Origin: a virus
IMG/VR virus record: IMGVR_UViG_3300019759_000004
Span: 1 to 33,853 of that record
Strand: one strand, 5' to 3'
Length of the DNA: 33,853 bases
The notes beneath the pieces are model-generated. The model saw only the letters and a program-made list of their open reading frames with translations. It was not told where the DNA came from and did no database searches. Shown in pieces: positions 1,639 to 33,853 of the stretch; the first letter of the stretch is position 1, and the number at the start of each line of letters is the position of its first letter. The position numbers and the translations under genes are program-made.

Positions 1639-1667
1639 TTGACAAACAATTAAATAAAAGTTATAGT
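1639..1667 (+). promoter_or_regulatory. Rightward early promoter
   Basis: -35 TTGACA (1639-1644), a 17-bp spacer and -10 TATAGT (1662-1667), the same hexamers and spacing as the leftward promoter. Between the two lies a T-rich tract (about 1605-1638) that could act as an UP element. Transcription starts shortly before the first leader hairpin. Confidence 0.85.
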
Positions 1668-1673
1668 AGAGCA

Positions 1674-1727
1674 GATGGAAAGTTTAAGGGGCTTTTCATT
1701 CATTAACTTTACCCTGAAAGGAGAAAT
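1674..1727 (+). promoter_or_regulatory. Structured leader 1: conserved-loop hairpin with possible pseudoknot
   Basis: The stem GATGGAAAG (1674-1682) pairs with CTTTTCATT (1692-1700), including two G-U pairs, around the loop TTTAAGGGG (1683-1691). After 7 nt comes TTTACCCTGAAAGGAG (1708-1723), which ends in the Shine-Dalgarno of the next gene. The loop and the downstream segment are identical in two other leaders (2467, 2936), whereas this stem is unrelated in sequence. AGGG in the loop can pair with CCCT downstream. Confidence 0.7.
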
Positions 1728-2444
1728 ATGAAAACTTTAACTCAAATTACAGCACTTTACAATAATGGAATTATTACTCAAGAGCAATATGAAAATTCTC
1801 TAGATAACAAATTCGGAATTGACAATATTGAAAATGTTATAACAACAGATAGTGACAACTCTTTAAATAAAGATCATTTGTCAAGATTTGATGTTCTGCA
1901 TACCTATTATAATAATTCTGATACGATTGATTCGAGCAGTGAGATATTTGAATCTATAAATGATGAAGGCGAGAAAGTCTATATATTGAATCCTGCTAAT
2001 TCAGATGAATATTTAGAGTATGCAGAAGAAGATTTAGGTGATTTAATAGAGAATCATCTTGATATTCTTGAGGTTTGGAATCAAGGGAGTGATGAACTTA
2101 AAAATGCTTGCTTTGGTGAGGATTGTGAAATTGATGAAGTCATTGTTTTACTAGAAAACGAGGATGAATCTCCTAATCAGAGTGCTGAGAGAGTTATTAT
2201 TATTGGTAGTATAGATATGACTGATTGTAACATTATTAATTACTCTTTACCTCATATTGGAGTTGATGAAAACGGTGCTCTATATGCTTATAATTATAAT
2301 AACTGTAATACTACAGTCGCTGATAGACCAAGTGGTATAAAAATTGAAATCAATGAATTAATGAAAGAATGGCAAGATAAAACTTCTATTTATTCGGAAG
2401 ATGAACTAAAAGAGATATTTGAATTATGGCTAAGAAATAACTAA
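1728..2444 (+). CDS. Very acidic first early protein, possible DNA mimic
   Basis: A 238-residue protein, first gene behind the rightward early promoter. By hand count it has about 52 Asp/Glu against 13 Lys/Arg. The N-terminus (ITALYNNGIITQEQYENSL) resembles the short SHOCT-type oligomerisation motif. Acidic clusters follow, such as DEYLEYAEEDLGDLIENHLD and LLENEDE. No signal peptide or membrane segment. Expression first in infection plus strong negative charge recalls DNA-mimic anti-restriction proteins such as T7 Ocr and other inhibitors of host defence. That is inference; no homologue is recognised. The start is fixed by AAAGGAG seven bases upstream, in structured leader 1. Confidence 0.8.
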   Translation: MKTLTQITALYNNGIITQEQYENSLDNKFGIDNIENVITTDSDNSLNKDHLSRFDVLHTYYNNSDTIDSSSEIFESINDEGEKVYILNPANSDEYLEYAEEDLGDLIENHLDILEVWNQGSDELKNACFGEDCEIDEVIVLLENEDESPNQSAERVIIIGSIDMTDCNIINYSLPHIGVDENGALYAYNYNNCNTTVADRPSGIKIEINELMKEWQDKTSIYSEDELKEIFELWLRNN

Positions 2445-4507: not shown

Positions 4508-5096
4508 AAGAACTATTGCTGCTAAAGGTGATAAATATGGCAATTTAATTGCAACAGGAAGAAATGATTCAAACATGGCAAACTACACTGTTTCTGAATT
4601 TACTTGTATTTGCAATAAAAAAGTATGGTTTACTTTAACACAAGTTAAATCTGAAACACATAAAAGACATTGTGGTTGTCTAGGCAAAAAAGAGCCTATT
4701 AGGAAAATTAAGTATGGTATAGGTTTTAGAATCGGAAACATGGAAATAATAAGGAGATATAAAGGCGGTAAGCTTGATGTAAAGTGTCATAATTGTGACA
4801 GAGTTGTGACAAAATACACTTATCACTTTTCTGTATTTAGTAAAATGAAGCCTGAAGAGCAGCTTCTGGCAAGTTGTGGATGCATAAAACTGAAAACTAA
4901 AAAAGGTATTCATGACAACAACTCCTTGTTATTAACTTATGCTCAATTCTTAAACAGGATTAATATTAAATATGACTTTGAGAAAAAAACTATAGATGGT
5001 AAAAAATATAAAAAAGAAAAAAGTAGGTTATTTTTTATAAAAGAAAATAAAGAGGTTATGAAATCTCTTTATGATCAAGGGAGAGGCTATGTATAA
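4494..5096 (+). CDS. Tandem zinc-knuckle protein related to phage HNH/AP2-type DNA-binding proteins
   Basis: A 200-residue protein with two copies of a phage module. Copy 1 (about 12-64) runs KYGNLIATGRND, a CICNKKVWFTLTQV strand and HCGCLG. Copy 2 (about 74-132) runs IGNMEIIRRYKGGK, CHNCDRVV and SCGCIK. The pattern of a Cys pair, a beta hairpin and a closing CGC is typical of the zinc-binding, DNA-recognising region of many phage HNH or AP2-like proteins. No HNH catalytic core (HH...N...H) is visible, so a nuclease role is doubtful and DNA binding more likely. The C-terminal 70 residues are Lys-rich. The start overlaps the previous gene by 14 bases and uses the duplicated junction cassette. 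Confidence 0.7.
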   Translation: MKVGKRTIAAKGDKYGNLIATGRNDSNMANYTVSEFTCICNKKVWFTLTQVKSETHKRHCGCLGKKEPIRKIKYGIGFRIGNMEIIRRYKGGKLDVKCHNCDRVVTKYTYHFSVFSKMKPEEQLLASCGCIKLKTKKGIHDNNSLLLTYAQFLNRINIKYDFEKKTIDGKKYKKEKSRLFFIKENKEVMKSLYDQGRGYV

Positions 5097-6190: not shown

Positions 6191-6564
6191 AAGAAGAAAA
6201 GAAATTAATAGAAAAAATAGTAAATTGGTGGGCTAAAGAAGTACAAAATGATTCTAATCAAAATAATGGTGAAGATGGACTTGCATCATTATTTGGTTCA
6301 ATGTTAAGGAATAATGAAATAGGCAGGATTGAAAAATCAGATATAGATCTGTTTAAATTAAATTTAACTAAAATACTTATGGAGCAAAAAGTTGAAGATA
6401 TTGAACTAGATGTTGATTATAATCCATGCTGTGATTTAATAAAAGCTATCCAAGGTACTAGTATAGGTCAGCACGTGTTCCCCTGGAAAACTAGAATGTA
6501 CATTAGTAATAATGAAATCTATGTTAAAGTTGGATATGCACAGCCTTATAAGAAATTAAGCTAA
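6187..6564 (+). CDS. Hypothetical protein, last gene of rightward operon
   Basis: A 125-residue acidic protein of unknown family: helical N-terminus (LIEKIVNWWAKEVQNDSNQN), a central acidic region and a beta-rich end (TRMYISNNEIYVKVGYAQPY). Start behind TTTAAGGAG. Its stop overlaps the stop of the convergent late operon (shared TTAAGCTAA). Confidence 0.7.
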   Translation: MKEEKKLIEKIVNWWAKEVQNDSNQNNGEDGLASLFGSMLRNNEIGRIEKSDIDLFKLNLTKILMEQKVEDIELDVDYNPCCDLIKAIQGTSIGQHVFPWKTRMYISNNEIYVKVGYAQPYKKLS

Positions 6565-7071
6565 AGCACTCCATAACCCAGTGTTTTCATCATAAAAACA
6601 CTCTTTCTTTAAGTACCATCTCTTATTATTTATCAAAACACATTCTTCTTTAATTCTAGAATCCTTTTGAATTTGATAAGATGGTAAATCTTCTAAGTCC
6701 ATTGCTGCAATCTCTTTTCCAATTAGTTCTTTACCAGCTAAAAATGCATCATAGCCCATATCAGAAGAAACTAATTTATAATATTGCCATGCTTTATAAT
6801 ATAAAAAACCTCTTGAATACCATGAAGCATTTCTTTTAACCATCATTTTCATACAGAAATAAAACTCTCTATTCCCTTTATTGAAATCGCTTCTATTTTC
6901 TCCGAAATAGGTTTTTATATCATGGACTGCACAACAAGCTTCAAATATTAAGTCCATGTATGGTTTAAGATATTTATATATGTATTCTGGAATCTTATCA
7001 ATTAAAGCTTGCGGTCCACATCCATTTATTATAGTTCTCTTATCATATTCATTTAAGTGTAAAATATCCAT
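6556..7071 (-). CDS. Phospholipase A2-like protein at end of late operon
   Basis: A 171-residue protein. The N-terminal part carries the signature of phage PLA2-like proteins: NGCGP (about 17-21), DKIPEYIYKYL, then FEACCAVHDIKTYFG with the catalytic-type His-Asp pair after Cys, and a downstream NREFYFCMKMM helix corresponding to the usual ADRVF...M helix. Secreted PLA2 enzymes cut the sn-2 ester of phospholipids with a His/Asp dyad. The C-terminal 70 residues are unassigned. It lies directly after the endolysin, so a role in membrane disruption at lysis is plausible. The usual AD before the second helix is not clear, so activity is uncertain. Start behind AAAGGATAATT. Confidence 0.55.
   Translation of the reverse strand: MDILHLNEYDKRTIINGCGPQALIDKIPEYIYKYLKPYMDLIFEACCAVHDIKTYFGENRSDFNKGNREFYFCMKMMVKRNASWYSRGFLYYKAWQYYKLVSSDMGYDAFLAGKELIGKEIAAMDLEDLPSYQIQKDSRIKEECVLINNKRWYLKKECFYDENTGLWSALA
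6563..6587. terminator. Probable terminator between convergent operons
   Basis: AAAGCACT (6563-6570) pairs with AGTGTTTT (6580-6587), eight pairs including one G-U, around a 9-nt loop, right after the stop of the rightward operon. The 3' arm ends in TTTT. It lies within the last codons of the opposing late gene and could work weakly in both directions. Confidence 0.45.
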
Positions 7072-7073
7072 AA

Positions 7074-7589
7074 TTATCCTTTTAAAGCCTTTTTCATACT
7101 TCTTTTAATAAACCTTCTTTTAGTTACAAATCTTCTGTTAGTATTTAAGGAAATGTGCACAAAAGTAGTATATAAAATAATTTGTCTTAATTCATCACTA
7201 AAATTTTTTATTAAAAAATCATAATACATTTTTAATTTATTTTTATTTAATATTCTTACACCTTCCTTAGTATAAAAACGTAAATCATCAGCCTCAATTT
7301 TAGGATGCTGAGAAAATAAAGCTCCACCAATTTTTTTATTTATTTTTAATGTTCTTATTGCAGAACCACTTTTTACAACAACATTAAAAGCTTTAAGGAA
7401 TGCATTATTTATCCTGTTGTGAGTATCTAATAATCTTAAGGCTTTTAATATCATTACATCTGTTAAAACTAAAGTATCGTGATGATTTGAAACTAAAATA
7501 GGAGCAAATAGATTATTAAAATAAATTTTATTTTCATCATTTTTTTTATAAATTTTGTTATTTTGATGTAAAGTTATAGATATACTCAT
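7074..7589 (-). CDS. Endolysin, peptidase M15-like zinc peptidase
   Basis: A 171-residue protein. The middle carries the M15_3 pattern: VVKSGSAIR, then INKKIGGALFSQHPKIEADD, where the H of SQH and the D of ADD are the first two zinc ligands. TTFVHISLNTNRR near the C-terminus matches the usual WVHVS...NR with the third ligand. M15 endolysins cut peptide bonds of peptidoglycan (D-Ala-D-Ala or L-Ala-D-Glu). The usual SGYRS is here SGSAIR. No signal peptide, so a holin would be needed. It overlaps the upstream gene (ATGA) and is followed by the PLA2-like gene, making this the lysis end of the late operon. Confidence 0.72.
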   Translation of the reverse strand: MSISITLHQNNKIYKKNDENKIYFNNLFAPILVSNHHDTLVLTDVMILKALRLLDTHNRINNAFLKAFNVVVKSGSAIRTLKINKKIGGALFSQHPKIEADDLRFYTKEGVRILNKNKLKMYYDFLIKNFSDELRQIILYTTFVHISLNTNRRFVTKRRFIKRSMKKALKG

Positions 7590-10827: not shown

Positions 10828-12498
10828 CTACCAGTTATTTTGATCTAGAAAGAAAAATTTCTGCTGTCTTGCAGGAAGTCCAGTATAACTATTATAAGTC
10901 AAATACCCCTTTTCTCCAATAATAAAAGGACTTCCTGTAAAATCTATTCCATCTTGATTTATACTATTTATTACTAACCCTGCAAGCTCAGCTCCACTTT
11001 CTTTTATAAAAGTAACATTATCACCTGATGCAAAGAAAGGGTAGTTGTAGTCCATTATGACAGCATCTTCAATATTTTCCCTATAAGTTTCTAGATATTC
11101 ACTTAAATTATCTTCATGTGCTAAAACAGATGTAGTTACAGCCTCCACTGGTATTCCAGGTGCAATAGGATTTTTTATAACATCTCTTGTTACTAAAAAT
11201 ACTATATTTTTCTCATCTTTTGCTAAGCAAAAAACTTTACTTGAAACATTCTGAAAAGTATAAAACTTATCTATATCTAATGCATTATAAAATCTACCTT
11301 CCCTGAAGTGCTCAAACATTAACTCATGCGTGGGAATGGTCAATTCTGAATATATAACAGAGAATACCCTTGTATAAAAAAAAGAAATATCCAGTACATC
11401 TTCAGCTTTTATACCTATAAAGTCTGATAAATCTATTTCTAAATCATTTCTAGAATATTGACTTGTATTTGTATTATTTATATTAACAGTGCTATTTCTC
11501 AACTTAACTGATATCTGCCCTATTCCAGAATAAATAGAACTCTTATAGTTCGTCTTAGTGTTAACATATTTACTTAAACCAACATCCTCTACTGTATCAA
11601 GACTTGATATGTCTGAAATACTCATAAAAGTATAAGCCTCTCTTGTGCTATTCCATGTAAAAACAGATGCATTTAATTTCCCATATAGTTTTAAATAATC
11701 TAGTATAGTATCTAGATTGTCAAGCTTAATATATGTATTATTGCTTGCTGAAGTAGTTATATTTGCTTTTACTGATATTTCTAGATAATCTAAAATTGGT
11801 GGTAGTTCATATTCAAAATATCTATCTATAGAGTATGTTTTATTTAAAGATTTATTTAATCTTTCTGTGGATATAACTTCATACTCTTCGCCATTATCCA
11901 GATATGTACCAAGATAGCGAGAGCCAGGAGGTATACTCCATGCCACATCTAGACAGGATATTGCATTTTCGCAAGTAAAAGAAAGAGTTGTTTGGTTAAA
12001 AACAGGTTGCTGTGTTATCAATCCTATGCTTAAAAGTTTGTCATCTTCCCATAAAAAAACTCTTTGCCCAATAAATGTTTTAGGGTATTTTCTGAGAAAA
12101 TAACGTTGCCCTATAGACTCATTTATTGTATATTTTTGACTAAAAGTCTTGTATCTGCTTCTAAAAACACTTAGACTATCTGTAGCTCCAGGAGTTACAT
12201 TATATACAAATACTACCTCGTTTTTTATCCAATAATAACCTGTTGTAACCCCAGACCCTCCTGGAACAACAAGAGTCACATCATCGCTGGCTACATCTTC
12301 AATTATTTCAGCCTCAATGTCATCATCTTGATAAAATTTTTCAAATATCTGGACTGGAAGATTAAAATCAAAACCTGAGACATCTTGCATTTCCATTTTT
12401 TCCAAATCTAAGCCAGGGGAAAAAACCTTGTCGATGCCATTTGACTTATCAACTTTTATCCTGCTTTGCATTAATCCAGCTATCTGTAAATACTTCAC
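10828..12498 (-). CDS. Baseplate hub/tail-tip-like structural protein
   Basis: A 556-residue protein of beta-rich composition, not assigned to a named family. The length, the position three genes after the tape measure and features such as a long central strand region (VEDVGLSKYVNTKTNYKSSI) and repeated aromatic residues fit a tail-tip hub or tail-associated protein. The GTG at 12498 is chosen: it overlaps the previous stop (GTGA) behind AAGGGA. A TTG six codons further upstream has no better ribosome site. It ends FFFLDQNNW. Confidence 0.6.
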   Translation of the reverse strand: MKYLQIAGLMQSRIKVDKSNGIDKVFSPGLDLEKMEMQDVSGFDFNLPVQIFEKFYQDDDIEAEIIEDVASDDVTLVVPGGSGVTTGYYWIKNEVVFVYNVTPGATDSLSVFRSRYKTFSQKYTINESIGQRYFLRKYPKTFIGQRVFLWEDDKLLSIGLITQQPVFNQTTLSFTCENAISCLDVAWSIPPGSRYLGTYLDNGEEYEVISTERLNKSLNKTYSIDRYFEYELPPILDYLEISVKANITTSASNNTYIKLDNLDTILDYLKLYGKLNASVFTWNSTREAYTFMSISDISSLDTVEDVGLSKYVNTKTNYKSSIYSGIGQISVKLRNSTVNINNTNTSQYSRNDLEIDLSDFIGIKAEDVLDISFFYTRVFSVIYSELTIPTHELMFEHFREGRFYNALDIDKFYTFQNVSSKVFCLAKDEKNIVFLVTRDVIKNPIAPGIPVEAVTTSVLAHEDNLSEYLETYRENIEDAVIMDYNYPFFASGDNVTFIKESGAELAGLVINSINQDGIDFTGSPFIIGEKGYLTYNSYTGLPARQQKFFFLDQNNW

Positions 12499-12812
12499 TC
12501 TATATCCCTTATACAAACACCATTATCACAAATCTTATCATCTTTACATACTCCTGTAGGATATTGGCTAGAGCATAAATTTTCTATCTCACAGCTCATT
12601 CCATTGTACCCATCTTTACAAGTGCAGCTATACTTAATGCAATCCCTTACATCATCCCTGCATTCATCAACATCCTCACATATACCATTATTTTTACAAG
12701 GACTACTTGAGCAATCTATAATCTTAATAGTGTTAATATTTTCTTCAGGTGTAGCCTCGTCTCCACAAGATAAAAATAGAAAAGATAATAATAAAATAAA
12801 TAAAAATCTCAT
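12495..12812 (-). CDS. Cys-rich lipoprotein with an EGF-like domain inside the tail operon
   Basis: A 105-residue protein. Residues 1-17 (MRFLFILLLSFLFLSCG) are a lipoprotein signal with a relaxed lipobox (FLSC) and Cys at 16. The EGF pattern follows: CSSSPCKNNGIC, a longer loop with two extra Cys, then CTCKDGYNGMSC with the diagnostic C-x-C-x8-C and the Gly-aromatic-Gly turn. A second four-Cys block (CSSQYPTGVC, CDNGVC) ends it. The start behind TGGAGG at 12812 is preferred over an ATG at 12830 without one. Phage lipoproteins next to receptor or tail genes (T5 Llp, TP-J34 Ltp) block superinfection. That role, or a virion role, is inference. EGF-like domains are rare in phages. Confidence 0.8.
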   Translation of the reverse strand: MRFLFILLLSFLFLSCGDEATPEENINTIKIIDCSSSPCKNNGICEDVDECRDDVRDCIKYSCTCKDGYNGMSCEIENLCSSQYPTGVCKDDKICDNGVCIRDIE

Positions 12813-12822
12813 AACTCCTCCA

Positions 12823-13527
12823 TTAAACATTTACCATAAACCCTAAATCAAACTGCTTTAAATTTTTATTAGGATATTGATCCTTTATACCATTATAAAG
12901 ACCAATATTTAAACTTAAATCAACGTCCTCTGCAATCTTAAAAGTTAACCCTATTATGTTTATAGACTCAGAAATACCTTTACCATTAAATTCAAGAAAC
13001 TTTTTTACATCGCTTCTTCTAAGAACAGGTAGAAATCTTATACTTGCAATATAAGATTCTCTATCATTATCTTCTTCATAGTCTGAAATAACAGGAAAGC
13101 CTCTTAAAGTTACATTGTTGTTTTCAAAATCTGGCTCGACCTCTTTGAATGTTTCAAGTATAGAATTTGGGTGAGGGTCTGGGTTTTCAGCATTCTGTAA
13201 AACCAATTTGGATACCCCCCACTTTGTAGCGAGGATAGGAGTTGTTGTTGGAAAAACAAAGTCTGGCTGAAAACCCAGCATACTTGCGATTGTAGCATCT
13301 TTAATTTCTAAAGTTCTTGCTTGATTATCTATATAATTAAACTCTGTAGCTGTAGAGGTACTTAATCCACCCCCTACACCTTCAGATGCAGATATAAGCT
13401 GTTCTAGCCATTCCTGAGCTGTTCTTTCAATTCCAACCCCTATGATATCAACTCCATTTATCCTGTAAGCCAGCCCTACTGTGGAGTAAGTTTTTTTAGA
13501 AACTGCTAAAACTGTTCTTAGTGCCAT
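12823..13527 (-). CDS. Tail protein following the tape measure
   Basis: A 234-residue protein of unknown family. Beta-rich, with ALRTVLAVSKKTYSTVGLAY at the start, a Gly-rich loop (SEGVGGGLSTSTATEFNY) and a C-terminal strand region (VDLSLNIGLYNGIKDQ). Start behind TGGAGGG. The position directly after the tape measure corresponds to the distal tail protein of siphoviruses, which joins tube and baseplate. That role is inferred from order alone. Confidence 0.55.
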   Translation of the reverse strand: MALRTVLAVSKKTYSTVGLAYRINGVDIIGVGIERTAQEWLEQLISASEGVGGGLSTSTATEFNYIDNQARTLEIKDATIASMLGFQPDFVFPTTTPILATKWGVSKLVLQNAENPDPHPNSILETFKEVEPDFENNNVTLRGFPVISDYEEDNDRESYIASIRFLPVLRRSDVKKFLEFNGKGISESINIIGLTFKIAEDVDLSLNIGLYNGIKDQYPNKNLKQFDLGFMVNV

Positions 13528-13574
13528 TTATCCCTCCATTAATACATAATAGCAAATATATTTAATTTTAGCAA

Positions 13575-15785
13575 CTAGTTAGCAACTAACCCCCTAACTT
13601 CTTTCCTGGCTTCCGTGTGAGAACCATATAGAGAAGTCATTACATTAAGTGTAACTTCCCCTTTACCAGCACTACCACTTCTTTCTGTTGCACCTGTATC
13701 TTTGCTAGATGAACCTGAAGACATTGCATTGCCTGCTGCAACTCCACCGCCCATCATTGCTGCACCTACAGCCATTTCTGCAACACCAACAGCAACTGCA
13801 TTAGATCCTAGTCCAGGAAATATTGCATTTTCTGCTGTACCGAACCATAAAGTCTTTAGTCCATCCCAGAAAATTTGCTGGCCAAACATCACGGCTTGCT
13901 GTGCTAGAATCTCAGGTATTTTATCAGCATTCCCTTGTATTACAGCATCTAAATAATCTGCACCAAACCCTTGCATTAATGCAAAATGCTTCTCAGCTTC
14001 AGCTTTTTTCTTAGCCCTGCCTTTAGCTTCAGCATCTGCTACTTCTTTTTCAAAAGAAATTTTCTGATCAAGGAGATCCTTAAATATACTTCTTTCACTT
14101 TCTAGGGCTCTTAATCTTTCCTTTTCTTTTAAATCAGTTTGCTTTGATGCAAATTCTGAGCTTTTTTGCTCTGTAAAATTTACAGTGTCTTTCCATAACC
14201 ACTTTAAGCCTTTTATTATATCAACCTGTGAGTCTTTTTCTATATCCAACTCTTTAGCTTTTGCTAATCTTATTGCTTTTAGCCTTGCAATAGTATTTCT
14301 ACTTGTAAGGTCATTAATTCTTTTTTCAAACTTTTCTTTAGCTTTTATTTGCTTTTCATTACTGAGCTCATTAAAATTCATTAATTTTTTTTCTATATCA
14401 ACAATTTCTTTTGCTAAACCTTTTCTTTCAGATAATACTTTAGCCTTGTTTTCTTTCCAGAATTTTGCTCTTTTTGCTTCCTTTTTTTTAGCATCAAGCT
14501 CAAGCTCTGTCTGTGCATCTTTGAATACTTTAAATAAACCAGAGTAACTTTTAAATATATCAGTTCCTTTTATTGCACTTTGTATTTTTTTTAAATTATT
14601 AGATACAGATACAAATCTTTTATTTAGCGTCAACTCAAAGTCCACAAAATCTAGTTGCCTAGCATCTTTTAAGCCTAGTCTATATTGTTTATTCAGATTT
14701 AGTACTTTATCATAATACTCTTTATCAACTTTTCTCTGTTTTTCCCTGTTTTTAGCTAAAATCTTAGTCCCTATATCGGCTTTTCTGATATTCTCCTCAT
14801 GCTCCTCTTTGAGCACCTGTAACCCTTTGTAATACTCTTTATACTGTGCAAGAATAAGACTTCTTGACTCTTTATCTTGCTTTTCAGAAATCTTTTTTAC
14901 TTTTGCCAACTCCTTAGAAGTAAGCATTTCTGCTTCCACTCTACCTTGATTAAATTCAATCAACTCTTTAAGTTGAACTTCAGCCATTGTTTTTGTTCCA
15001 GTCGTTATTTCTGCTAAGGTCCAGCCTATAGCGTTTCCTAGACCTACAAATACTTCACTCATTACATTTACAGAGTTGGTAAATGCTGTCTCAAGTGTTT
15101 TTATAGCCTTAGTGCCTTGTGTGTTCATTTTTATAAAATCATCTGTCAATTCTCCTGTTATAACCTGACCTTTCTTAAGTATTTCATTTAAAAAAGCTTG
15201 GGATTGCTCAGCTTCAGTTAATTTATCTTTTGTTTTGCCTAATACGGCTGCATATTCTGTATCTATCTTGACTTTATTAATCATTATACCTAAGTTATCA
15301 GCTATAAGCTTTTGCTGTCTGGCTGTAGAGGTTATTAAATCGTCAAAAGCTTGCTTTGTATCAATTCCCATTACTACAGCTAGCTTAGAGGATATTTTCA
15401 TTAATTTTGTTAATTTCCCATTGCCTAGCTCGATTCCAAATGCCATAGCTTTATTAGCAGCAGTTACCATGTCGAATTTGTTTGCAAGCCCAAAAGTTGC
15501 ATCAGAAGTGCTAATTAACTGATTATATACATCCTTAGATTTTAACTCCAATATCTTAAGTGCTAAAGTTTGCTTTTCTGAGCTTTTAATCATCTCTTTT
15601 CCAGCATTAAGAATTGTTGCACCCATTACACCTTCAACAACTTTTCCCACTTTCTTAAACATTTTTTCCATGTCTGATGTAGTTTTCTTAGTCTCATTTT
15701 TAAGCTTCTCAAGATCTTTTTTTACTTCACTAAGCTCTTTCTTCATTTCAGACTGTACTTTAATTATAAGCTGTATTTCATTCAT
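13575..15785 (-). CDS. Tail tape measure protein
   Basis: A 736-residue protein, the longest here. It sets tail length and lines the tube until DNA ejection. The N-terminal coiled coil (MNEIQLIIKVQSEMKKELSE) is followed by a Gly/Ala segment (VVEGVMGATILNAGK), the typical MAFGIELGNGKLTKLMKIS region with VVMGIDTKQAFDDLITSTAR, a very long Lys/Glu-rich helical body (about 270-590) and a hydrophobic patch near 655-700 (VAVGVAEMAVGAAMMGGGVA). At roughly 0.15 nm per residue, the value for lambda-like tails, the tail would be about 110 nm. The ATG at 15785 behind AAGGAGG is the start. The in-frame ATG at 15824 lies in the upstream gene. Confidence 0.9.
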   Translation of the reverse strand: MNEIQLIIKVQSEMKKELSEVKKDLEKLKNETKKTTSDMEKMFKKVGKVVEGVMGATILNAGKEMIKSSEKQTLALKILELKSKDVYNQLISTSDATFGLANKFDMVTAANKAMAFGIELGNGKLTKLMKISSKLAVVMGIDTKQAFDDLITSTARQQKLIADNLGIMINKVKIDTEYAAVLGKTKDKLTEAEQSQAFLNEILKKGQVITGELTDDFIKMNTQGTKAIKTLETAFTNSVNVMSEVFVGLGNAIGWTLAEITTGTKTMAEVQLKELIEFNQGRVEAEMLTSKELAKVKKISEKQDKESRSLILAQYKEYYKGLQVLKEEHEENIRKADIGTKILAKNREKQRKVDKEYYDKVLNLNKQYRLGLKDARQLDFVDFELTLNKRFVSVSNNLKKIQSAIKGTDIFKSYSGLFKVFKDAQTELELDAKKKEAKRAKFWKENKAKVLSERKGLAKEIVDIEKKLMNFNELSNEKQIKAKEKFEKRINDLTSRNTIARLKAIRLAKAKELDIEKDSQVDIIKGLKWLWKDTVNFTEQKSSEFASKQTDLKEKERLRALESERSIFKDLLDQKISFEKEVADAEAKGRAKKKAEAEKHFALMQGFGADYLDAVIQGNADKIPEILAQQAVMFGQQIFWDGLKTLWFGTAENAIFPGLGSNAVAVGVAEMAVGAAMMGGGVAAGNAMSSGSSSKDTGATERSGSAGKGEVTLNVMTSLYGSHTEARKEVRGLVAN

Positions 15786-16119
15786 TTTTAGCCTCCTTTT
15801 TCCTAGCATATTCAGAGGTTTCATCCCTGTCTTCTCGCATGGTTTGTATCAAGATGGATTTAATAATAGGTATTTCGTCTAGATTTGTTACGATTTTATT
15901 TTGACTAAATTCTTTCCAAAAATTCCATATATGATCATGTTTTAAATGCACCTCTACGGCACACCCTATAACATAATTCCTACCTTCAAAAGAGTCGACG
16001 AGTTCATAATCAATCTGCTCTTCTTTAGCCTCAGAAAACATACACTTCCTTTCTTCTTTCTCATTGCACATTTCATGACAATCCCTATACCTCTGATATA
16101 GGTTTTCATCAATAAACAT
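15778..16119 (-). CDS. Tail assembly chaperone, frameshift extension (gpT-like)
   Basis: A 113-residue open frame between the first chaperone gene and the tape measure. It includes LYQRYRDCHEMCNEKEERKC, a middle with HDHIWNFWKEFSQNK, and a Lys/Glu-rich end. The only ATG is glued to AGGAGG with no spacer, so it is a poor independent start. The frame is, however, open upstream and joins the preceding gene after a -1 slip on a run of ten A, adding ITIIRR before the ATG. In lambda and many siphoviruses the two chaperones are made exactly this way (G and G-T). Confidence 0.7.
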   Translation of the reverse strand: MFIDENLYQRYRDCHEMCNEKEERKCMFSEAKEEQIDYELVDSFEGRNYVIGCAVEVHLKHDHIWNFWKEFSQNKIVTNLDEIPIIKSILIQTMREDRDETSEYARKKEAKNE

Positions 16120-16133
16120 CCTCCTGATTATTG

Positions 16134-16841
16134 TTATTTTTTTTTTAATTCTGCAAATCTTAAATCAAAGATACCTATAAAGACTCTAGATATTTCTATT
16201 ACTTCAGTTATTTCAAGAAGGTCAATATCTTCCTCATCTATTTTTTTTCCATTTATAAATGCACTCTCAAAAATCTCCTCAAAAATCTGAAGTAACTCTT
16301 GCTGAATATGATCATGCTTAAGAATAAAGCTTAGAGATTCTTTAGATAAGTTTTTTAATTTATTATACTGAATCCTCGTAAAGTTCTCTTTTAATAAAAA
16401 TCTATAAAGTAAAAAATCACCATCTATTTTTTCAAAACCTTCTTGAATTAAATAATCTTCAAAAATTTTTATCTTTTGCTTAACAGTCAAGATGTTATTT
16501 GAGGATTCCTCTTGAGTTTGAATAAAAGACTCATATTCACTTATTTTATAGTTATTAACTCCATCATCTTTTTTTAAAAATGACTTTTTATTTAATATAT
16601 ATTTATCAAATTTACCCTCTTCTTCAAGTGTAAAACCAAGGCTGTTTTTCTTCACGTGGTCAGACCACAAGCTTAATATCTCAGCTTTTGTAAGAATTTT
16701 AATTTCACTCTTTTCATCTTCAATTTTTGCATATATTTCAGATGCTTTTTGCTCAATAAATATTTTTTTATTATAAATTTGTTTATCAAGATGATCTGAT
16801 CCACTTAAAATTCTGTCTCTAATCCTATTCCATTTGCTCAT
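16134..16841 (-). CDS. Tail assembly chaperone (gpG-like)
   Basis: A 235-residue, highly charged, helical protein between tail tube and tape measure genes, the conserved place of the gpG chaperone that coats the tape measure during tube assembly. Lys/Glu-rich helices dominate (IEQKASEIYAKIEDEKSEIK), with a central LKENFTRIQYNKLKNLSKES segment. It ends ELKKK at a run of ten A immediately before TAA. Slipping back one base there continues into the next frame for a product of about 355 residues. It is longer than lambda gpG (140), so assignment rests on position and the slip site. Confidence 0.7.
   Translation of the reverse strand: MSKWNRIRDRILSGSDHLDKQIYNKKIFIEQKASEIYAKIEDEKSEIKILTKAEILSLWSDHVKKNSLGFTLEEEGKFDKYILNKKSFLKKDDGVNNYKISEYESFIQTQEESSNNILTVKQKIKIFEDYLIQEGFEKIDGDFLLYRFLLKENFTRIQYNKLKNLSKESLSFILKHDHIQQELLQIFEEIFESAFINGKKIDEEDIDLLEITEVIEISRVFIGIFDLRFAELKKK
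16137..16146 (-). promoter_or_regulatory. Predicted -1 frameshift site (A10)
   Basis: The minus strand reads GAA TTA AAA AAA AAA TAA. After a -1 slip the frame continues ATA ACA ATA ATC AGG AGG ATG, straight into the gpT-like frame. A AAA AAA heptamers are efficient bacterial slip sites, and the stop directly after the run is typical. Confidence 0.72.
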
Positions 16842-16852
16842 TACAACTCCTG

Positions 16853-18049
16853 TTAAATAATGTACATCGTCTTAGTTAAATCTATAGCTGGCTCAACTAT
16901 ATCAGCTTGAGACTGTCCAACATTAGCACTTAACATATAAGTTACATAAGATGCTTTATCATTAACTATGTTAGGGTTTTCAGAGTTAACTTGAGAAACT
17001 GGAGCATAAATTGCAAAGCCTGGCTTCTGAGCTAATATCATAAAATAAGTATTATTATTGTATTCACTACCTAAAATATAGTCATAAGCTCTAACTTCAA
17101 CGCTTGTTTTATACACTTGCTTGTATGTACCACAATTACCCTGCATAGACTCTGTAGCTTGCCCTGTAAGCCTTGTCATCTCTCTTTCAAGTGTAAACTT
17201 AAAAGAAGAAAGGCATTTATTTGAAGGGTCGCCAAGCGTAACCTGCTTGAAATGAGTAGTTGTCATATCCTTACTATTATCTTCATAAGTCATTGTTCCT
17301 GTTGCAGCAACATCATTCCATGTTAATACACTTTTCAATGCAACATCGCCCTGATAGTTAAATTTTAACTTCAATAAATCTCTTTCAGGTGTTTCAAAAT
17401 CAAGACCAAATCTAACATGAGATATCAGTCTAGCCCCTCTCTGTGTTTCAACATACATGATATATGAATCATCATTTATTATATCTGTATCCCAGTGTGA
17501 CTGAACTACTATTGTGTCACCATTTTTAGCAGTAACCTTGCTCTTAAGAGTTATAGTGTTAGTAGCTACACTCTCAATCACAGAAATATATCCACCTATT
17601 TCAACGAATCTTCCTATATCATCAGATGTAATATTTAGTCCTACCGTATTAATTGTTAAGCTTTTTCTAAAATCGCCATCAATAACATCTGCATTCCCAC
17701 TGTTTAAAATCTTTTTACCAAAACAAGTCTCGAGAAGGTCAGTGTGAAAAGTGGAAAAACCTGGATAGTGCATCTTTGTAATATTGCCTTCAGGTGTTTC
17801 AAATCCAAGAGTTGTTATATCATCCCTTGTGTATTTTGCGAACTGCTCCTGAGTCAGGGGCTCTGTTATCCATGCGTGCTCTGTTATATCTCCAGCTACA
17901 GCTAATTGTCTCCATCCGAGCCCACTTGCAGCTAGAATCATCGCATCGGTTATCAAGTCGCCTTCGTCAATAGTGTAACCTAGAGCTGTTGCTAAATCTT
18001 TTGTTTTTAATAAAGCAATTCTCATTATTTTTGCATTAAAAGCTGTCAT
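16853..18049 (-). CDS. Major tail tube protein
   Basis: A 398-residue protein, mostly beta. It lies just upstream of the chaperone pair and tape measure, where the tube protein sits in siphoviruses. Its N-terminal part includes MILAASGLGWRQLAVAGDIT. A middle insert (about 130-200: SDDIGRFVEIGGYISVIESV, then TITLKSKVTAKNGD) looks like a separate beta domain on the tube surface. A strand-rich end (YVTYMLSANVGQSQADI) follows. The start behind AGGAGG is clear. It is larger than the usual 150-250-residue tube proteins because of the inserted domain. Confidence 0.65.
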   Translation of the reverse strand: MTAFNAKIMRIALLKTKDLATALGYTIDEGDLITDAMILAASGLGWRQLAVAGDITEHAWITEPLTQEQFAKYTRDDITTLGFETPEGNITKMHYPGFSTFHTDLLETCFGKKILNSGNADVIDGDFRKSLTINTVGLNITSDDIGRFVEIGGYISVIESVATNTITLKSKVTAKNGDTIVVQSHWDTDIINDDSYIMYVETQRGARLISHVRFGLDFETPERDLLKLKFNYQGDVALKSVLTWNDVAATGTMTYEDNSKDMTTTHFKQVTLGDPSNKCLSSFKFTLEREMTRLTGQATESMQGNCGTYKQVYKTSVEVRAYDYILGSEYNNNTYFMILAQKPGFAIYAPVSQVNSENPNIVNDKASYVTYMLSANVGQSQADIVEPAIDLTKTMYII

Positions 18050-23114: not shown

Positions 23115-24471
23115 CGTTTTCACTCCCTGTTCTTTCAGTTTCAATAGCTTTAAGTCGCTCTTGTGCTTCACTTTCATTTAAACCCTCCATTTCCATTACC
23201 ATCATAACTTTAGTAATTGTTCCATTTGCATATCTATAAGTAATATTTTCTTGTCTTTGTTTTTCTGTTTGCTCTTTAGTTAAAGCAGTTTCACCAGGAA
23301 TCAAATCTGCATAAATAACTTCACTTTCTTTATTTACGATCTTTAGATCCTGTAAAACTTGCTGATCTTCTTCCTCAAACTCTTCCCATTCACCTATTTT
23401 GGAATCTCTAACAGTCACAATATTTTCCATTGCTAATATTCTAGCAACTCCACTTTCAACTTTTACATCAGAAAACAATCCATTTATATCAACACCTTCA
23501 GCATAAGCAAGCCTTTTAAATGATTTTTCAATAAATTCCATCCACTCAAGCTGGGTTTTCCCATCCCCTAAATCCAGTGTTGACAAAGTATTATTTTGTC
23601 CATCTTCAGATCTTTTTAAGTCAGGAACATCAAATAAACCTAGCTGCTTAACCAGTTCTTTCCATTTTGGAGCACTCAACATAGTTGAACCATATATTTG
23701 CTTCAAAAAGTTTCTTCTAGCTGATATATCACCCCAAGCAACACCGCCAGCAAGGACACATTCCATAATTATCAATGGAGATAAAACAGGAGTTGAATTG
23801 TCCTTTCCTATCAATGTAAATGGTAAAACTTCATAATTTGACTGATCCTTGTCAAGCAAGTCTGAAGTTAAAACTTTAGGTAATAAATCCCAGTCTTCAG
23901 CTATAACTTTATATATTTTACCAGCTTTCCATATTTTAAAATTATATAAAATAGCTTTTTGATCTTTATTAATATCTGCACTTTTACCAACTTTTACAAT
24001 AGTGTACAATACATCATTGTTCACGTCTTCAACTTGAATGAATTCTGAAGCATGCAAAGCCTTAAACTTTTCTTTTCCATTAATATTATAAGTCCAAAAC
24101 AGAGCTCTGGCATTTAAGTTGTAATATTGTTCTAATTTACCTATTTCTCTTTTTCTTCTCTTAATCCATTTCTTTTTTTCCCATTCTGGATAAGAAACAT
24201 CTTTAGAGTAAATATTTGAACCTGATCTAACAAAAGTCTTTGTTGTGTTTTCTTGTATCAAATCCATATTTTTTTTATTTTTATAATATCTTTTTGCAAT
24301 ATAATTTGCTAGATCCTGTGACTGTTTACCATTAAGAAATCTTTTATCAGCCTCGAAAATAGATGGGTTGTAAGGTAAAATCATGTATTCACTTTCCTCT
24401 TCCTTCTTTATATTTCTAGGATTAACTTCTACTCCAGTACTTAACCCATTCTTACCTTTACTAATAACCAT
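23068..24471 (-). CDS. Portal protein
   Basis: A 467-residue protein between the large terminase and MuF genes, the fixed place of the portal, the dodecameric ring through which DNA enters the head. The start is low in structure. A central segment with ARRNFLKQIYGSTMLSAPKW, then LDLGDGKTQLEWMEFIEKSF, and LFSDVKVESGVARILAMENI is consistent with the crown and clip of SPP1-type portals. The C-terminal tail is acidic and Glu/Gln-rich. The ATG at 24471 has GGAG nine bases upstream and overlaps the terminase stop. An in-frame ATG at 24486 is possible. Confidence 0.75.
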   Translation of the reverse strand: MVISKGKNGLSTGVEVNPRNIKKEEESEYMILPYNPSIFEADKRFLNGKQSQDLANYIAKRYYKNKKNMDLIQENTTKTFVRSGSNIYSKDVSYPEWEKKKWIKRRKREIGKLEQYYNLNARALFWTYNINGKEKFKALHASEFIQVEDVNNDVLYTIVKVGKSADINKDQKAILYNFKIWKAGKIYKVIAEDWDLLPKVLTSDLLDKDQSNYEVLPFTLIGKDNSTPVLSPLIIMECVLAGGVAWGDISARRNFLKQIYGSTMLSAPKWKELVKQLGLFDVPDLKRSEDGQNNTLSTLDLGDGKTQLEWMEFIEKSFKRLAYAEGVDINGLFSDVKVESGVARILAMENIVTVRDSKIGEWEEFEEEDQQVLQDLKIVNKESEVIYADLIPGETALTKEQTEKQRQENITYRYANGTITKVMMVMEMEGLNESEAQERLKAIETERTGSENGDSKSKKGVIQAPPE

Positions 24472-26176
24472 AATCAACATCTCCATTTACAATTTCAAGT
24501 ATAGATTTATTAAGATGAAACAAAGGAGCAATCATTGCTTCAGCAGGGTGACTCATCTCTTTTTGTCTTTCATCACTGTATTTTTCGCCATATATATAAC
24601 TCATAGCGAACCATTTATTCTTTTCATCAACTGTTACTTTATTAACTTCTTCACCGCTTTCATCAATTTCTGTTTGTCTAAACATTTCATTTACAACTAA
24701 TAACTGGTCATCCATGTCTCTATTAGAAACATTTATAACTCTTATGTTAACTTTTCTAAATGCAGACATCCAGCCAGAGCCAGCTGTTCCATAAGCTTTA
24801 ACTGAATTTTCTGCAAATATAGTAAACTTACCATATTTATTTTTTAAAGAATCAATCCAGCTAACCATAGAACCCTTATTAAATATTTCAACCGGTAAGA
24901 TATACCAACAACCATACTCATCAATTATAATAGGGCAAGCAGCAGCTGTTTTATGCCCACCTGGATCAAAACCCATTAATACATCATAGTATTTAAAATC
25001 ATCAACTTCAAGTTCATCAAAATGATCTGGAGTCAGTGAATAAAAGCTTCTATCAGGAGAACCTGCATCAAGGTCTGCTTTTAGTTCATTTGCAATCCTG
25101 ATAGGGTCATGAAAAAATCTTGATGATTCAATGTCAAAATAATCACTCTTTCCACTTTTCAAAGGATGATCTAAGTATGTATTTCTAAAGGAAAATGATT
25201 TTATTCCAGGATATTTTTTTTCAAATATTTTAAATGTTTCTTGCCATGCTTTTAAATATCCAATACCACTCTTTAGAAAGCTTAAAAAATCAGTCCATAA
25301 AGTTCTTAATTCGTGATTTTCAAGCATTTGTGCACCACGTATTATTTCTCTAAAACCTGCATCAGTAGTTGACTTTAGAGTCCCTGCATAACATACATTA
25401 GTAGCAGCCATCGTTACAGCTCCTTTTGTATCACTAATCTTTTTATCTGCTCCAGCTTCATCTTTAAAAGCACCTGTTACTCTTCCTTGCCTTCCAGGGT
25501 CACTTCCCGATGAAGCCCCTTTTATTCCTGAATGTGGAGTTTCATAAAAAGAAAGGAATTTATCATCATAAAAGTTTTTAGCTGAATATATAACAGTTTG
25601 CTCAATAAGAGCCCTTCCTCTTCCCATATTAGTTTGAGTTCTATCTTTGTTTTTATCTACATCAGTTTCAACTCTAGATAAAAATAAAACTTCTCTACCT
25701 CTATGATGAAGCAAAGACATTATTTCTCCTGATATTATTGTAAAACTTAAACCCACATCTCTGCTTTTCCAGTAGGCAAGTGAATATCTAAGATAGAACT
25801 CCCATATAACCACTTGATACCAAAATGCAGTAAATCTAACAAAAGGATTTTTAGTATTTCCTGGAAGCTCTCCAATATTCTCCTTGTACCAATCGCCAGA
25901 AAATTTTCTTTGGTCAACAGATGTAATGTTTAAATTAACAAATAAAATAAAATCAAATTCTCTATCCATGTATTCATGATATTCTTTTGCAAAAGATTTA
26001 TCTTTATAATATTCAATTAAAAAAGATTTCCTTAAGGCAACAACCTTGCCTTGATAATCTTTCATGAAGATAACTAATCTTTTTTCATAACTATATTCAT
26101 CTTTAAATTCATTTTCTACATCTATACTTAAATGATGAAATAATTTTAAAAATCTTTGGAATTTAGAAGTCTTCAT
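24461..26176 (-). CDS. terL: Terminase large subunit
   Basis: A 571-residue protein. The ATPase half has a variant Walker A, YWKSRDVGLS (about 135-144), Walker B FKDEAGA (about 237-243, D239 E240) and the coupling motif AGTLKSTTD (264-272). The nuclease half starts LMGFDPGGHKTAAACP (D404), continues IFAENS and ends EMSHPAEAMI, an RNase H-like fold. It packages and cuts DNA together with the small subunit just upstream, whose end it overlaps. The N-terminal 100 residues are extra compared with short terminases. A stand-alone relative of its nuclease half is encoded at 31861-32580. Confidence 0.9.
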   Translation of the reverse strand: MKTSKFQRFLKLFHHLSIDVENEFKDEYSYEKRLVIFMKDYQGKVVALRKSFLIEYYKDKSFAKEYHEYMDREFDFILFVNLNITSVDQRKFSGDWYKENIGELPGNTKNPFVRFTAFWYQVVIWEFYLRYSLAYWKSRDVGLSFTIISGEIMSLLHHRGREVLFLSRVETDVDKNKDRTQTNMGRGRALIEQTVIYSAKNFYDDKFLSFYETPHSGIKGASSGSDPGRQGRVTGAFKDEAGADKKISDTKGAVTMAATNVCYAGTLKSTTDAGFREIIRGAQMLENHELRTLWTDFLSFLKSGIGYLKAWQETFKIFEKKYPGIKSFSFRNTYLDHPLKSGKSDYFDIESSRFFHDPIRIANELKADLDAGSPDRSFYSLTPDHFDELEVDDFKYYDVLMGFDPGGHKTAAACPIIIDEYGCWYILPVEIFNKGSMVSWIDSLKNKYGKFTIFAENSVKAYGTAGSGWMSAFRKVNIRVINVSNRDMDDQLLVVNEMFRQTEIDESGEEVNKVTVDEKNKWFAMSYIYGEKYSDERQKEMSHPAEAMIAPLFHLNKSILEIVNGDVDYGY

Positions 26177-27584: not shown

Positions 27585-27998
27585 ATGTATAAATTCCAAT
27601 TAAAAGAAGCTAAAAAAGATATAAAAATAGGGAAAGTGTTAAATGCATCATATAAATTTAATAAAAAAATTAATAAAGAAACTAGCAAGGCAATTAAAAA
27701 AACAATTAAAAAGAAAGAAATGGAGGATATTATGAAATCTAACACCTTGACAATGATTATAACTATTTTAACAGTTGTACTTGCAGGAATAGGCTTTGTA
27801 TTTAAAACAGGTGCTCAATATCAGAAAATTGTTGATAGTGGAGCAAAAACATCTGAACAGCTGACAAAATTAATAAAACTAAATGAATCATCAATTAAAG
27901 ATGTTGCACAAATTAAGGACACATCAAATCAACTTGAAATTTACTTAAATTTAACTCATCAGAAGGTTTTTGGAAGGGAAATAAAAATAAGAAGGTAG
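27585..27998 (+). CDS. Dual-start membrane protein (possible holin/antiholin or exclusion protein)
   Basis: A lone plus-strand gene of 137 residues between two leftward blocks, with its own promoter. The first 49 residues contain 16 Lys and no hydrophobic run. In frame at 27732, GGAGG with five-base spacing precedes a second ATG. This would give an 88-residue product starting MKSNTLTMIITILTVVLAGI with one membrane helix and then a coiled-coil-like tail (SEQLTKLIKLNESSIKDVAQ). Two products differing by a positive N-terminal extension recall the long and short forms of lambda S. Its isolation and promoter recall lysogenic-conversion or superinfection-exclusion genes. Which one applies is unknown. 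Confidence 0.65.
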   Translation: MYKFQLKEAKKDIKIGKVLNASYKFNKKINKETSKAIKKTIKKKEMEDIMKSNTLTMIITILTVVLAGIGFVFKTGAQYQKIVDSGAKTSEQLTKLIKLNESSIKDVAQIKDTSNQLEIYLNLTHQKVFGREIKIRR

Positions 27999-31860: not shown

Positions 31861-32580
31861 TTAAAAAATAAATCTCTTAAGTTCTTCAGCATTATTAAAC
31901 ATAACATCAACACCTAGCAATACATTCATTACACCTTCAGCAATTGCACTTGCATCATATTCTGTTTCACTTACATACTTAAGTTCTTGTCTATAACCTT
32001 TTATAAGTCTTACACCGTAATCAAGCATTACTTTTTCATTAAATAATGCATTTGCTAGCATTATTTTTTCATTGATTTTCCTAACTGGAGAAACTAAAAC
32101 TTCTATTTTTAGATTTTTAAATAAACCACCAATACCACCATATCCAAAAACACTTAAATCCGCGGGATCTATAAAAACAGAAAAAACACCATATTTTTTT
32201 GATAATTTTTTTATAAAATCAACAATATTTAATCCATTTGCTGACTCTGGAGTTAAAACAATATAATTACCTTCATCATCAATTGCAACAGGGCAAAATG
32301 TAAAGTTTTGGTTACGACAAACAGTATAACCCATTGCAACTACATTATTATTCATGCTTGATCCGAAATCCTTAAATTTATTTAAAGTTAGATTATAGAA
32401 GGAATTATCATTGTAGGCATAATAATTTATTTCTTTTTTTTCTCTTTCTCTCTCTTTAGCAATTTCACTTTCTAAAAATCTAGATACTGAGTTACTACAA
32501 GAAGCAAAAACAGGCATTTTAGATAAATTGTTCATTTTTTGCATAAAAACAGATGGACTTACCTGATTATCTTCTTTCAT
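31861..32580 (-). CDS. Stand-alone relative of the terminase nuclease domain, probably catalytically degenerate
   Basis: A 239-residue protein. Residues 81-181 align by eye with residues 399-500 of this phage's large terminase. The terminase reads MGFDPGGHKT, CPIIIDEYG, WIDSLKNKYGKF and YGTAGSGWM. This protein reads MGYTVCRNQNF, CPVAIDDEG, FIKKLSKKYGVF and FGYGGIGGLF. The V...R spacing and NALF against NEMF also agree. The first catalytic Asp (GFDPG) is replaced (GYTVC); FIDPAD and EYDASAIAEGV could supply the others. The N-terminal 75 residues, with a Lys/Glu/Arg-rich helix, are new. An ATPase half is absent. Start behind GAGGAGAGG. A packaging regulator or inactive paralogue is inferred. 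Confidence 0.6.
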   Translation of the reverse strand: MKEDNQVSPSVFMQKMNNLSKMPVFASCSNSVSRFLESEIAKEREREKKEINYYAYNDNSFYNLTLNKFKDFGSSMNNNVVAMGYTVCRNQNFTFCPVAIDDEGNYIVLTPESANGLNIVDFIKKLSKKYGVFSVFIDPADLSVFGYGGIGGLFKNLKIEVLVSPVRKINEKIMLANALFNEKVMLDYGVRLIKGYRQELKYVSETEYDASAIAEGVMNVLLGVDVMFNNAEELKRFIF

Positions 32581-33372: not shown

Positions 33373-33539
33373 AGTTTACTCCTCGTTATTATACACAAAG
33401 GACAATCAGTTTTTATATTATCTATTTTCTGTAAAATTTCTGTATCACTAAACCTGCCCCACTCTTTGCCAAATTCTGGTAAAACAAATAATACACCGCA
33501 ATTACTGCAAGTTTTAGTAAAAACAGTTTCTCTTATCAT
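33357..33539 (-). CDS. Small zinc-binding protein
   Basis: A 60-residue protein with CSNCGVLFVLPEFGKEWGRF and then DCPLCII, giving two CxxC pairs about 35 residues apart, as in zinc ribbons. Its ATG is immediately after the upstream stop in the duplicated junction cassette (GTGGAGGGTTAAATG). Function unknown. Confidence 0.65.
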   Translation of the reverse strand: MIRETVFTKTCSNCGVLFVLPEFGKEWGRFSDTEILQKIDNIKTDCPLCIITRSKLCLKN

Positions 33540-33572
33540 TTAACCCTCCACAACTTTAAATTCAGCTTCAAT
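33537..33572 (-). repeat. Stop/SD/start junction cassette, copy 2
   Basis: 36 bases, one mismatch (33566) to 95-130. It encodes the tail EAEFKVVEG of the Cys-rich protein, provides GGAGG and the start of the next gene. The two copies flank exactly one gene on the circular map. Confidence 0.85.
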
Positions 33573-33827
33573 CACATTTATTAATTTATCATAAAAACCA
33601 TTTTTTCTGGCAAAACTTATAACTTCTTTTTTTTCATTTTCTAAAAAACTATCATAACTTTCAATCAAATAATCAACAAGATGCTCTTCGCAAAAATCAT
33701 AAATACATGATCCCATGCTAAAAAAACTAGATATTCCTGCAAGCGACAAATCAGACTTATCATACATTGTCGAGTCACCACAAAAATTATTACAATCATC
33801 TATGTCACATATAGTTACAGTACTCAT
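33540..33827 (-). CDS. Cys-rich hypothetical protein spanning the circular join
   Basis: A 95-residue acidic protein: MSTVTICDIDDCNNFCGDST, then a central SFFSMGSCIYDFCEEHLVDY with FCEEH, resembling small phage zinc proteins of the form CxxC...FCxxHL, and a helical second half. It ends EFKVVEG, the same tail as the replication initiator. Its start lies in the terminal repeat; on the circle it directly follows the replication gene. Both its own and its neighbour's ribosome sites come from the duplicated cassette. Confidence 0.7.
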   Translation of the reverse strand: MSTVTICDIDDCNNFCGDSTMYDKSDLSLAGISSFFSMGSCIYDFCEEHLVDYLIESYDSFLENEKKEVISFARKNGFYDKLINVIEAEFKVVEG

Positions 33828-33853
33828 TTAACCCTCCACAACTTTAAATTCAG
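33731..33853. repeat. Terminal direct repeat, right copy
   Basis: Exact copy of 1-123; see the left copy. It shows that the sequence is circular or circularly permuted and that one copy is redundant in any map. Confidence 0.95.

What the first reader, a model, noticed from the sequence alone, without database searches (positions are those of the whole stretch)
12495..12812. EGF-like lipoprotein embedded among phage tail genes
A lipoprotein signal (FLSC), an EGF-like six-Cys pattern ending C-x-C-x8-C with a GYNG turn, and an additional four-Cys block lie in a 105-residue gene coupled to the baseplate-hub gene (GTGA overlap). EGF-like domains are an animal-type extracellular module and are unusual in phages. 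Known phage lipoproteins beside tail genes (T5 Llp, TP-J34 Ltp) block superinfection, and a surface-displayed EGF fold could cap a receptor or bind host matrix.
Basis: partly seen in the sequence, partly recalled or inferred. Interest (0 to 1): 0.75.

Follow-up and report, generated by a model that had tools for sequence, protein, structure and literature searches.

The report
EGF-like lipoprotein in phage tail operon
A bacterial virus carries, squeezed between two of its tail genes, a small fat-anchored surface-type protein built on the disulphide-knotted 'EGF' module best known from animals; no other phage we could search has one, and it probably sits in the host's envelope to block re-infection or loss of new virus particles on cell debris.

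Summary
Window 12495-12812 (minus strand) encodes a 105-aa protein with a good ribosome-binding site, a PROSITE-type lipobox (FLSC, Cys16) and a complete EGF-like cysteine frame (Cys34, 39, 45, 63, 65, 74). Two extra Cys (51, 58) lie on the EGF hairpin, and a four-Cys block follows. The EGF match is not compositional: the real sequence hits 69 PDB chains at E<=1, the best of them Del-1, Notch and clotting-factor EGF modules; shuffled, reversed and Cys-fixed controls hit 0, 0 and 1 non-EGF chain. An alignment-guided AlphaFold model matches single EGF domains (TM to target 0.68-0.79). Codon use is normal for this phage, and the TGA overlaps the next gene's GTG start. The record has a 123-bp terminal repeat, so it is probably a complete 33.7-kb circular genome.

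Nothing like it was found in PHROGs, INPHARED or the IMG/VR scans; clear EGF hits there are repeat arrays in giant-virus- or eukaryote-like records. Bacteroidota encode comparable cellular EGF lipoproteins, so an animal origin is unnecessary.

Best explanation (inferred): a late-expressed envelope lipoprotein that works like T5 Llp, T1 Cor or Rtp45, on a new scaffold. The known cases act from the periplasm, not the cell surface. Function, host and the 'hub' label remain unproven.

The parts
12495..12812 (-). Gene for the EGF-like lipoprotein, 105 aa (ATG at 12812, TGA at 12497-12495); SD GGAGGAG just upstream
12765..12812 (-). Signal peptide with lipobox L-F-L-S-C (residues 1-16; lipid-modified Cys16; Gly at +2, acidic at +3/+4)
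   Evidence: numbering, hydrophobicity; PROSITE lipobox rules from own knowledge: Arg at position 2, no D/E/R/K in the six residues before the box
12588..12713 (-). EGF-like domain, residues 34-75; Cys 34, 39, 45, 63, 65, 74, plus extra pair Cys51/Cys58 on the long beta-hairpin
12513..12575 (-). C-terminal four-Cys block, residues 80-100 (Cys 80, 89, 95, 100); fold unassigned, low confidence in model
10828..12498 (-). Next gene, 556 aa from GTG overlapping the lipoprotein stop (GTGA); presumptive tail hub / tail-tip gene by position only
12823..13527 (-). Preceding gene, 234 aa, presumptive distal tail gene by position only
13575..15824 (-). Tape-measure-like protein, 749 aa; 40% identity over 108 aa to a 662-aa hypothetical protein of Rhodobacteraceae phage OP947162, weak match to the annotated tape measure of phage My1
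8469..9686 (-). Tail-fibre-like protein with a Laminin_G_3/ConA-like lectin domain
7074..7589 (-). Peptidase M15_3 / endolysin-like gene downstream of the tail genes

Best explanation
This is a phage-encoded envelope lipoprotein. Shown by sequence: export signal with lipobox, EGF-like domain with an extra Cys pair, second Cys-rich block, placement in the tail gene run and translational overlap with the following gene. Inferred: it is made late with the tail proteins, exported by Sec, lipidated on Cys16 and sorted to the outer membrane (Gly, not Asp, at +2, if the host follows the E. coli rule). Its disulphides form in the oxidising envelope, and the rigid EGF/Cys-rich head binds the outer-membrane receptor that the phage's own tail tip recognises. 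That keeps new virions from being wasted on the producing cell or its lysis debris and blocks superinfection by like phages. It thus works like T5 Llp, T1 Cor and Rtp45 but is not homologous by any test run here. The receptor-blocking step is the least certain one.
For: Lipoprotein signal and only convincing such gene in the window. EGF fold support. Position inside the tail gene run, with GTGA overlap to the next gene. Normal codon usage. No terminator between the tail genes and no promoter-like excess in 12300-16900 (19 found, 18.4 expected), consistent with late co-transcription. Literature: exclusion factors of small siphoviruses are encoded at the locus next to the tail-tip hub (PMC11990801; PMC8594841); the cor locus lies immediately downstream of the tail fibre gene cluster in unrelated phages (PMC13164509); Llp lies next to pb5 and carries an intramolecular disulphide (PMC9586334); Rtp45 is a disulphide-bearing lipoprotein that blocks LptD (PMC12685063).
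Against: No sequence family match to any phage lipoprotein. Published Cor and Llp genes follow the hub or receptor-binding gene, whereas this one precedes the presumptive hub. Llp is expressed early (title of Decker 1994 as listed), while this gene seems late. The protein is larger and far richer in disulphides than Llp or Rtp45. The host is unknown, so even the presence of an outer membrane is inferred. Only one genome carries it, so no conservation test was possible.
Confidence: 0.45

Rival explanations
1. It is a virion (tail-tip) component: made together with its neighbours, the EGF/Cys-rich head is built into or displayed at the tail end and helps to grip the host surface or the outer membrane during DNA entry; the lipid helps to insert into the membrane.
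For: It sits between two presumptive tail-tip genes and overlaps the next gene by 4 bases; a lectin-like tail fibre gene is close by.
Against: An exported, lipidated protein is on the wrong side of the membrane for cytoplasmic tail assembly, and the reducing cytoplasm disfavours 12 cysteines pairing (general knowledge). No other gene of the tail run shows a signal peptide.
Confidence: 0.17
2. It is a cargo ('moron') gene of bacterial origin: a host-type EGF lipoprotein captured by the phage that alters the infected cell's surface (adhesion, protease or predator protection), unrelated to phage receptors.
For: Cellular bacterial lipoproteins with an EGF domain right after the lipobox exist in Bacteroidota; no phage relatives.
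Against: No close bacterial homologue: the genome-contig scan gave only a signal-peptide match, and 395 Bacteroidota genomes gave only weak, mostly signal-peptide or stop-interrupted matches. It lacks the C-terminal domain of those proteins. No integrase was recognised among the genes scanned, so a lysogenic benefit is unlikely. Overlap with the next gene and typical codon usage suggest long residence.
Confidence: 0.22
3. It is a lysis protein: the outer-membrane (Rz1-like) half of a spanin, the inner half being the N-anchored coiled-coil-like protein at 27585-27998.
For: It is the only convincing lipoprotein in the genome; the gene at 27585-27998 has one membrane segment and a weak Rz-like spanin match (E 0.024).
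Against: The two genes are about 15 kb apart on opposite strands; known o-spanins are short and usually nested in or next to the Rz gene (general knowledge). The EGF/Cys-rich make-up is foreign to them.
Confidence: 0.06
4. It is a cysteine-rich protein without an EGF fold, the similarity being coincidence of cysteine spacing.
For: Pfam EGF stays below its cut-off (17.5 against 21.5 bits); AlphaFold without an alignment was uninformative (pLDDT 48).
Against: Both PROSITE EGF signatures plus the N/G-G-x-C and G-Y-x-G features; composition and reversal controls fail to reproduce the hits; alignment-guided model pLDDT 87-89 over residues 31-50 with EGF matches.
Confidence: 0.1

Closest known systems
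T5 Llp / T1, N15, phi80 Cor receptor-blocking lipoproteins
   Same: Small phage lipoprotein encoded at the tail-tip / receptor-binding locus; intramolecular disulphide (PMC9586334, PMC13164509).
   Different: No detectable sequence similarity by PHROGs or INPHARED searches; EGF plus a second Cys block (12 Cys besides the lipidated one) instead of a single disulphide; lies before, not after, the presumptive hub gene.
Rtp45 / Oekolampad superinfection-exclusion lipoproteins
   Same: Small siphophage lipoprotein with a disulphide (PMC12685063).
   Different: Rtp45 is about 6 kDa with one disulphide and a hairpin entering the LptD lumen; this mature protein is about 9.9 kDa with an EGF-like domain; target unknown.
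TP-J34 Ltp
   Same: Phage-encoded lipoprotein.
   Different: Ltp is in the lysogeny module and acts in a Gram-positive host (PMC3952083); no Ltp-family hit here.
Bacteroidota cellular EGF lipoproteins (loci L029, L031, L035)
   Same: Lipobox followed by one EGF-like domain; 38-47% identity over the EGF part.
   Different: Those are 184-190 aa (stop to stop) with a large C-terminal domain; they lack the extra Cys pair and the four-Cys tail.
Animal EGF modules (Del-1 EGF2, Notch, factor X)
   Same: Six-Cys frame, C-x-C-x8-C, G-Y/F-x-G turn; best PDB and Foldseek hits.
   Different: Here a single domain on a bacterial lipoprotein signal with a Cys pair on the hairpin; no evidence of animal origin.

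Membership tests
EGF-like domain | PROSITE PS00022 and PS01186 signatures and six-Cys order | tested here: met
EGF-like domain | Pfam EGF (PF00008) above gathering score | tested here: not met
   17.5 bits against 21.5; the hairpin insert lowers the score, so the claim is 'EGF-like', not a Pfam EGF member
EGF-like domain | Sequence similarity to solved EGF domains beyond composition | tested here: met
   against controls
EGF-like domain | EGF fold and disulphides 1-3, 2-4, 5-6 | tested here: inconclusive
   Alignment-guided model matches EGF domains, but the alignment itself consisted of EGF repeats; single-sequence model failed; disulphides not measured
Bacterial lipoprotein | Signal peptide with lipobox | tested here: met
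   lipidation itself not testable here
Llp/Cor/Rtp45 superinfection-exclusion lipoproteins | Sequence family membership | tested here: not met
   No PHROGs, Pfam, NCBIfam or INPHARED tblastn hit to such a family
Llp/Cor/Rtp45 superinfection-exclusion lipoproteins | Encoded at the tail-tip / receptor-binding locus | tested here: inconclusive
   Inside the tail run, but hub and receptor-binding genes are unproven and the order differs
Llp/Cor/Rtp45 superinfection-exclusion lipoproteins | Blocks the phage receptor | not testable with these tools
   needs infection or adsorption assay
Ltp (host cell surface-exposed lipoprotein) | Ltp family match | tested here: not met
   no Pfam or PHROGs match
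Rz1-like o-spanin | Nested in or next to the i-spanin gene | tested here: not met
   about 15 kb from the only weak Rz-like candidate, on the other strand

The most novel reading that the evidence does not exclude
A lytic phage uses an EGF-like, disulphide-rich lipoprotein head, a scaffold not seen in other phages, as its receptor-blocking or envelope-binding factor, translationally coupled to its tail-tip gene.
Probability: 0.4. Interest if true: 0.68.

Novelty: new variant of a known kind. Interest (0 to 1): 0.52.

Why it matters
Receptor-blocking lipoproteins are known mainly from coliphages and tend to be recognised by their place beside the receptor-binding gene. An EGF-scaffold example in a virus with almost no known relatives would widen the scaffolds known for this job and show that EGF modules work in phage-infected bacterial envelopes. 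It would also give a marker for the unknown receptor locus. The test is simple: express the one gene and ask whether adsorption drops.

Tried and rejected
Relatives of P0001, the terminase, the 234-aa gene and the presumptive hub were sought in IMG/VR: only a 12.9-kb fragment of the same virus (L002, 99.99% identical over the 12.4 kb held) turned up. It ends before the lipoprotein. The first IMG/VR motif scan was mistyped by one base, so it was out of frame; its 5 hits serve only as a chance baseline. The corrected Y-type, F-type and CxxxPCxNGGxC scans gave clear EGF proteins only as repeat arrays in giant-virus- or eukaryote-like records (L009, L012, L013, L015, L016, L046, L049, L050); the others were interrupted, short or otherwise non-EGF. 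One 95-aa frame in L051 contains CVCECGFSGPICE, but it begins without a signal and looks zinc-ribbon-like; not pursued. The Aequorivita hit (L003) is signal peptide only. Weak matches in Bacteroidota are mostly signal-peptide or stop-interrupted. Single-sequence AlphaFold was uninformative. Synteny with Rhodobacteraceae phage OP947162 was tried, but only the tape measure is homologous, so 'insertion between Dit and hub' could not be shown. Literature searches for an EGF-domain phage lipoprotein found none.

Full report
OBSERVATION. The reported interval is read on the minus strand. The ORF 12495-12812 gives a 105-aa protein. A strong SD (GGAGGAG) precedes the ATG at 12812. Residues 2-16 form a hydrophobic signal ending in FLSC; by the PROSITE lipobox rules (own knowledge) it qualifies, and it is the only convincing lipoprotein-like gene in the window. 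The mature protein would start at Cys16, about 9.9 kDa, pI 4.2, with 12 more cysteines. The TGA stop overlaps a GTG start of the next gene (GTGA, 12498-12495; sequence). Codon usage matches the other phage genes (the value printed there for 10828-12497 is out of frame and should be ignored).

EGF CHARACTER. Cys34-x4-Cys39-x5-Cys45-...-Cys63-x-Cys65-x8-Cys74 with the N-G and G-Y-N-G features is the EGF frame; both PROSITE signatures match. Only 6.4e-5 of composition-preserving shuffles match both, and none of 500,000 the fuller expression. phmmer finds 69 PDB chains at E<=1, led by Del-1 (5.8e-7) and Notch-1 (6e-7). A shuffled and a reversed copy find none, and a copy keeping only the Cys positions finds one unrelated coat protein at E 0.82. 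Pfam's EGF model reaches only 17.5 bits (cut-off 21.5), understandable given the long insert with Cys51 and Cys58. AlphaFold on the single sequence was uninformative. With nine EGF repeats from other viral records aligned it gave pLDDT 87-89 for residues 31-50 and a beta-hairpin 44-51/57-64 that puts Cys51 and Cys58 on facing strands. Foldseek against the PDB returns EGF domains, TM to target 0.68-0.79 for single domains, though E-values are only about 0.02-0.1 and the best overall is 0.002. This model is partly shaped by the alignment, so it is support, not proof. The C-terminal block (Cys80, 89, 95, 100) is modelled with low confidence.

SURROUNDINGS. The record carries a perfect 123-bp direct terminal repeat, so it is probably a complete 33.7-kb circular genome. 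Recognisable genes: small terminase, Erf annealing protein, RNA ligase, a tape-measure-like protein with a homologous segment in Rhodobacteraceae phage OP947162, a LamG/ConA-like fibre gene, and an M15 endolysin-like gene. The large terminase (24461-26176) is named from its position next to the small terminase and general resemblance, not from a family hit. The two genes flanking the lipoprotein have no hits anywhere, so 'distal tail' and 'hub' are positional labels. No terminator was found in 12300-16900, and promoter-like matches are at chance level.

RARITY. No PHROGs family, no INPHARED hit even at E 10 for the Cys-rich part and no IMG/VR relative. Three in-frame EGF signature scans of 2.9 million viral contigs gave clear EGF proteins only as repeat arrays in giant-virus- or eukaryote-like records. 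The predicted viral structure library returns poxvirus growth factors and giant-virus EGF proteins, and no EGF protein of a phage. The signatures are strict, so EGF variants could be missed. In contrast, 4 of 296 Bacteroidota genomes exceed the Pfam EGF cut-off, and three of the seven stretches found belong to lipoproteins with an EGF domain directly after the lipobox (alignment). An animal source is therefore unnecessary. The host is unknown; frequent strong SD sites make Bacteroidota an unlikely host (general knowledge).

FUNCTION. The best reading is a late-made envelope lipoprotein that protects progeny or blocks superinfection. Small siphoviruses encode receptor-blocking factors at the locus next to the tail-tip hub (PMC11990801; PMC8594841; PMC13164509). 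T5 Llp and Rtp45 are disulphide-bearing lipoproteins acting on the periplasmic side (PMC9586334; PMC12685063). Weak points: different gene order, no homology, unknown host, a single genome. Rivals are a captured bacterial EGF lipoprotein (cargo), a virion component, and an o-spanin.

VERDICT. Real, well-formed and apparently unique among searched phages. Structure claim strong (about 0.9 EGF-like), functional claim moderate (0.45). Filed as a new variant of phage tail-locus lipoproteins by likeness of work, not as a member of the Llp, Cor or Ltp families.

Noticed in passing
31861-32580 (-): Stand-alone paralogue of part of this phage's own presumptive large terminase (24461-26176): 27% identity over 128 aa, E 4e-14. 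The aligned GFDPGG of the terminase reads GYTVCR here, so a catalytic Asp may be lost: a duplicated, possibly inactive terminase nuclease-like domain of unknown use.
   Followed up: partly
2447-2520, 2916-2989 and partly 1662-1735 (+): Repeated leader element upstream of consecutive rightward genes: a strong hairpin (GCTCTTGCAAT...ATTGCAAGAGC, -19.1 kcal/mol, z -4.45) followed by ACCCTGAAAGGAGA and a start codon; third copy keeps only the ribosome-site part. No Rfam match.
   Followed up: partly
1-123 and 33731-33853: Perfect 123-bp terminal direct repeat: record probably a complete circular genome of 33,730 bp.
   Followed up: yes
6556-7071 (-): Protein with a CCAVHD motif reminiscent of phospholipase A2 (C-C-x-x-H-D); no Pfam, PHROGs or PDB support.
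   Followed up: partly
27585-27998 (+): Membrane-anchored, coiled-coil-like protein on the plus strand amid minus-strand genes; weak Rz-like spanin match (E 0.024).
   Followed up: partly
83-150 and 33525-33592: Two genes end in the same FKVVEG peptide followed by an identical ribosome site (78% over 68 nt), suggesting duplication of a gene end plus start signal.
   Followed up: no
whole window: The packaging, capsid, portal and tail proteins tested have almost no recognisable relatives in INPHARED or, for those tested, in IMG/VR apart from a fragment of the same virus: a deeply divergent phage lineage.
   Followed up: partly
L051, minus strand near 4564-4602: 95-aa frame in a 44.8-kb viral contig containing CVCECGFSGPICE; a possible but signal-less EGF-like or zinc-ribbon-like motif.
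   Followed up: no
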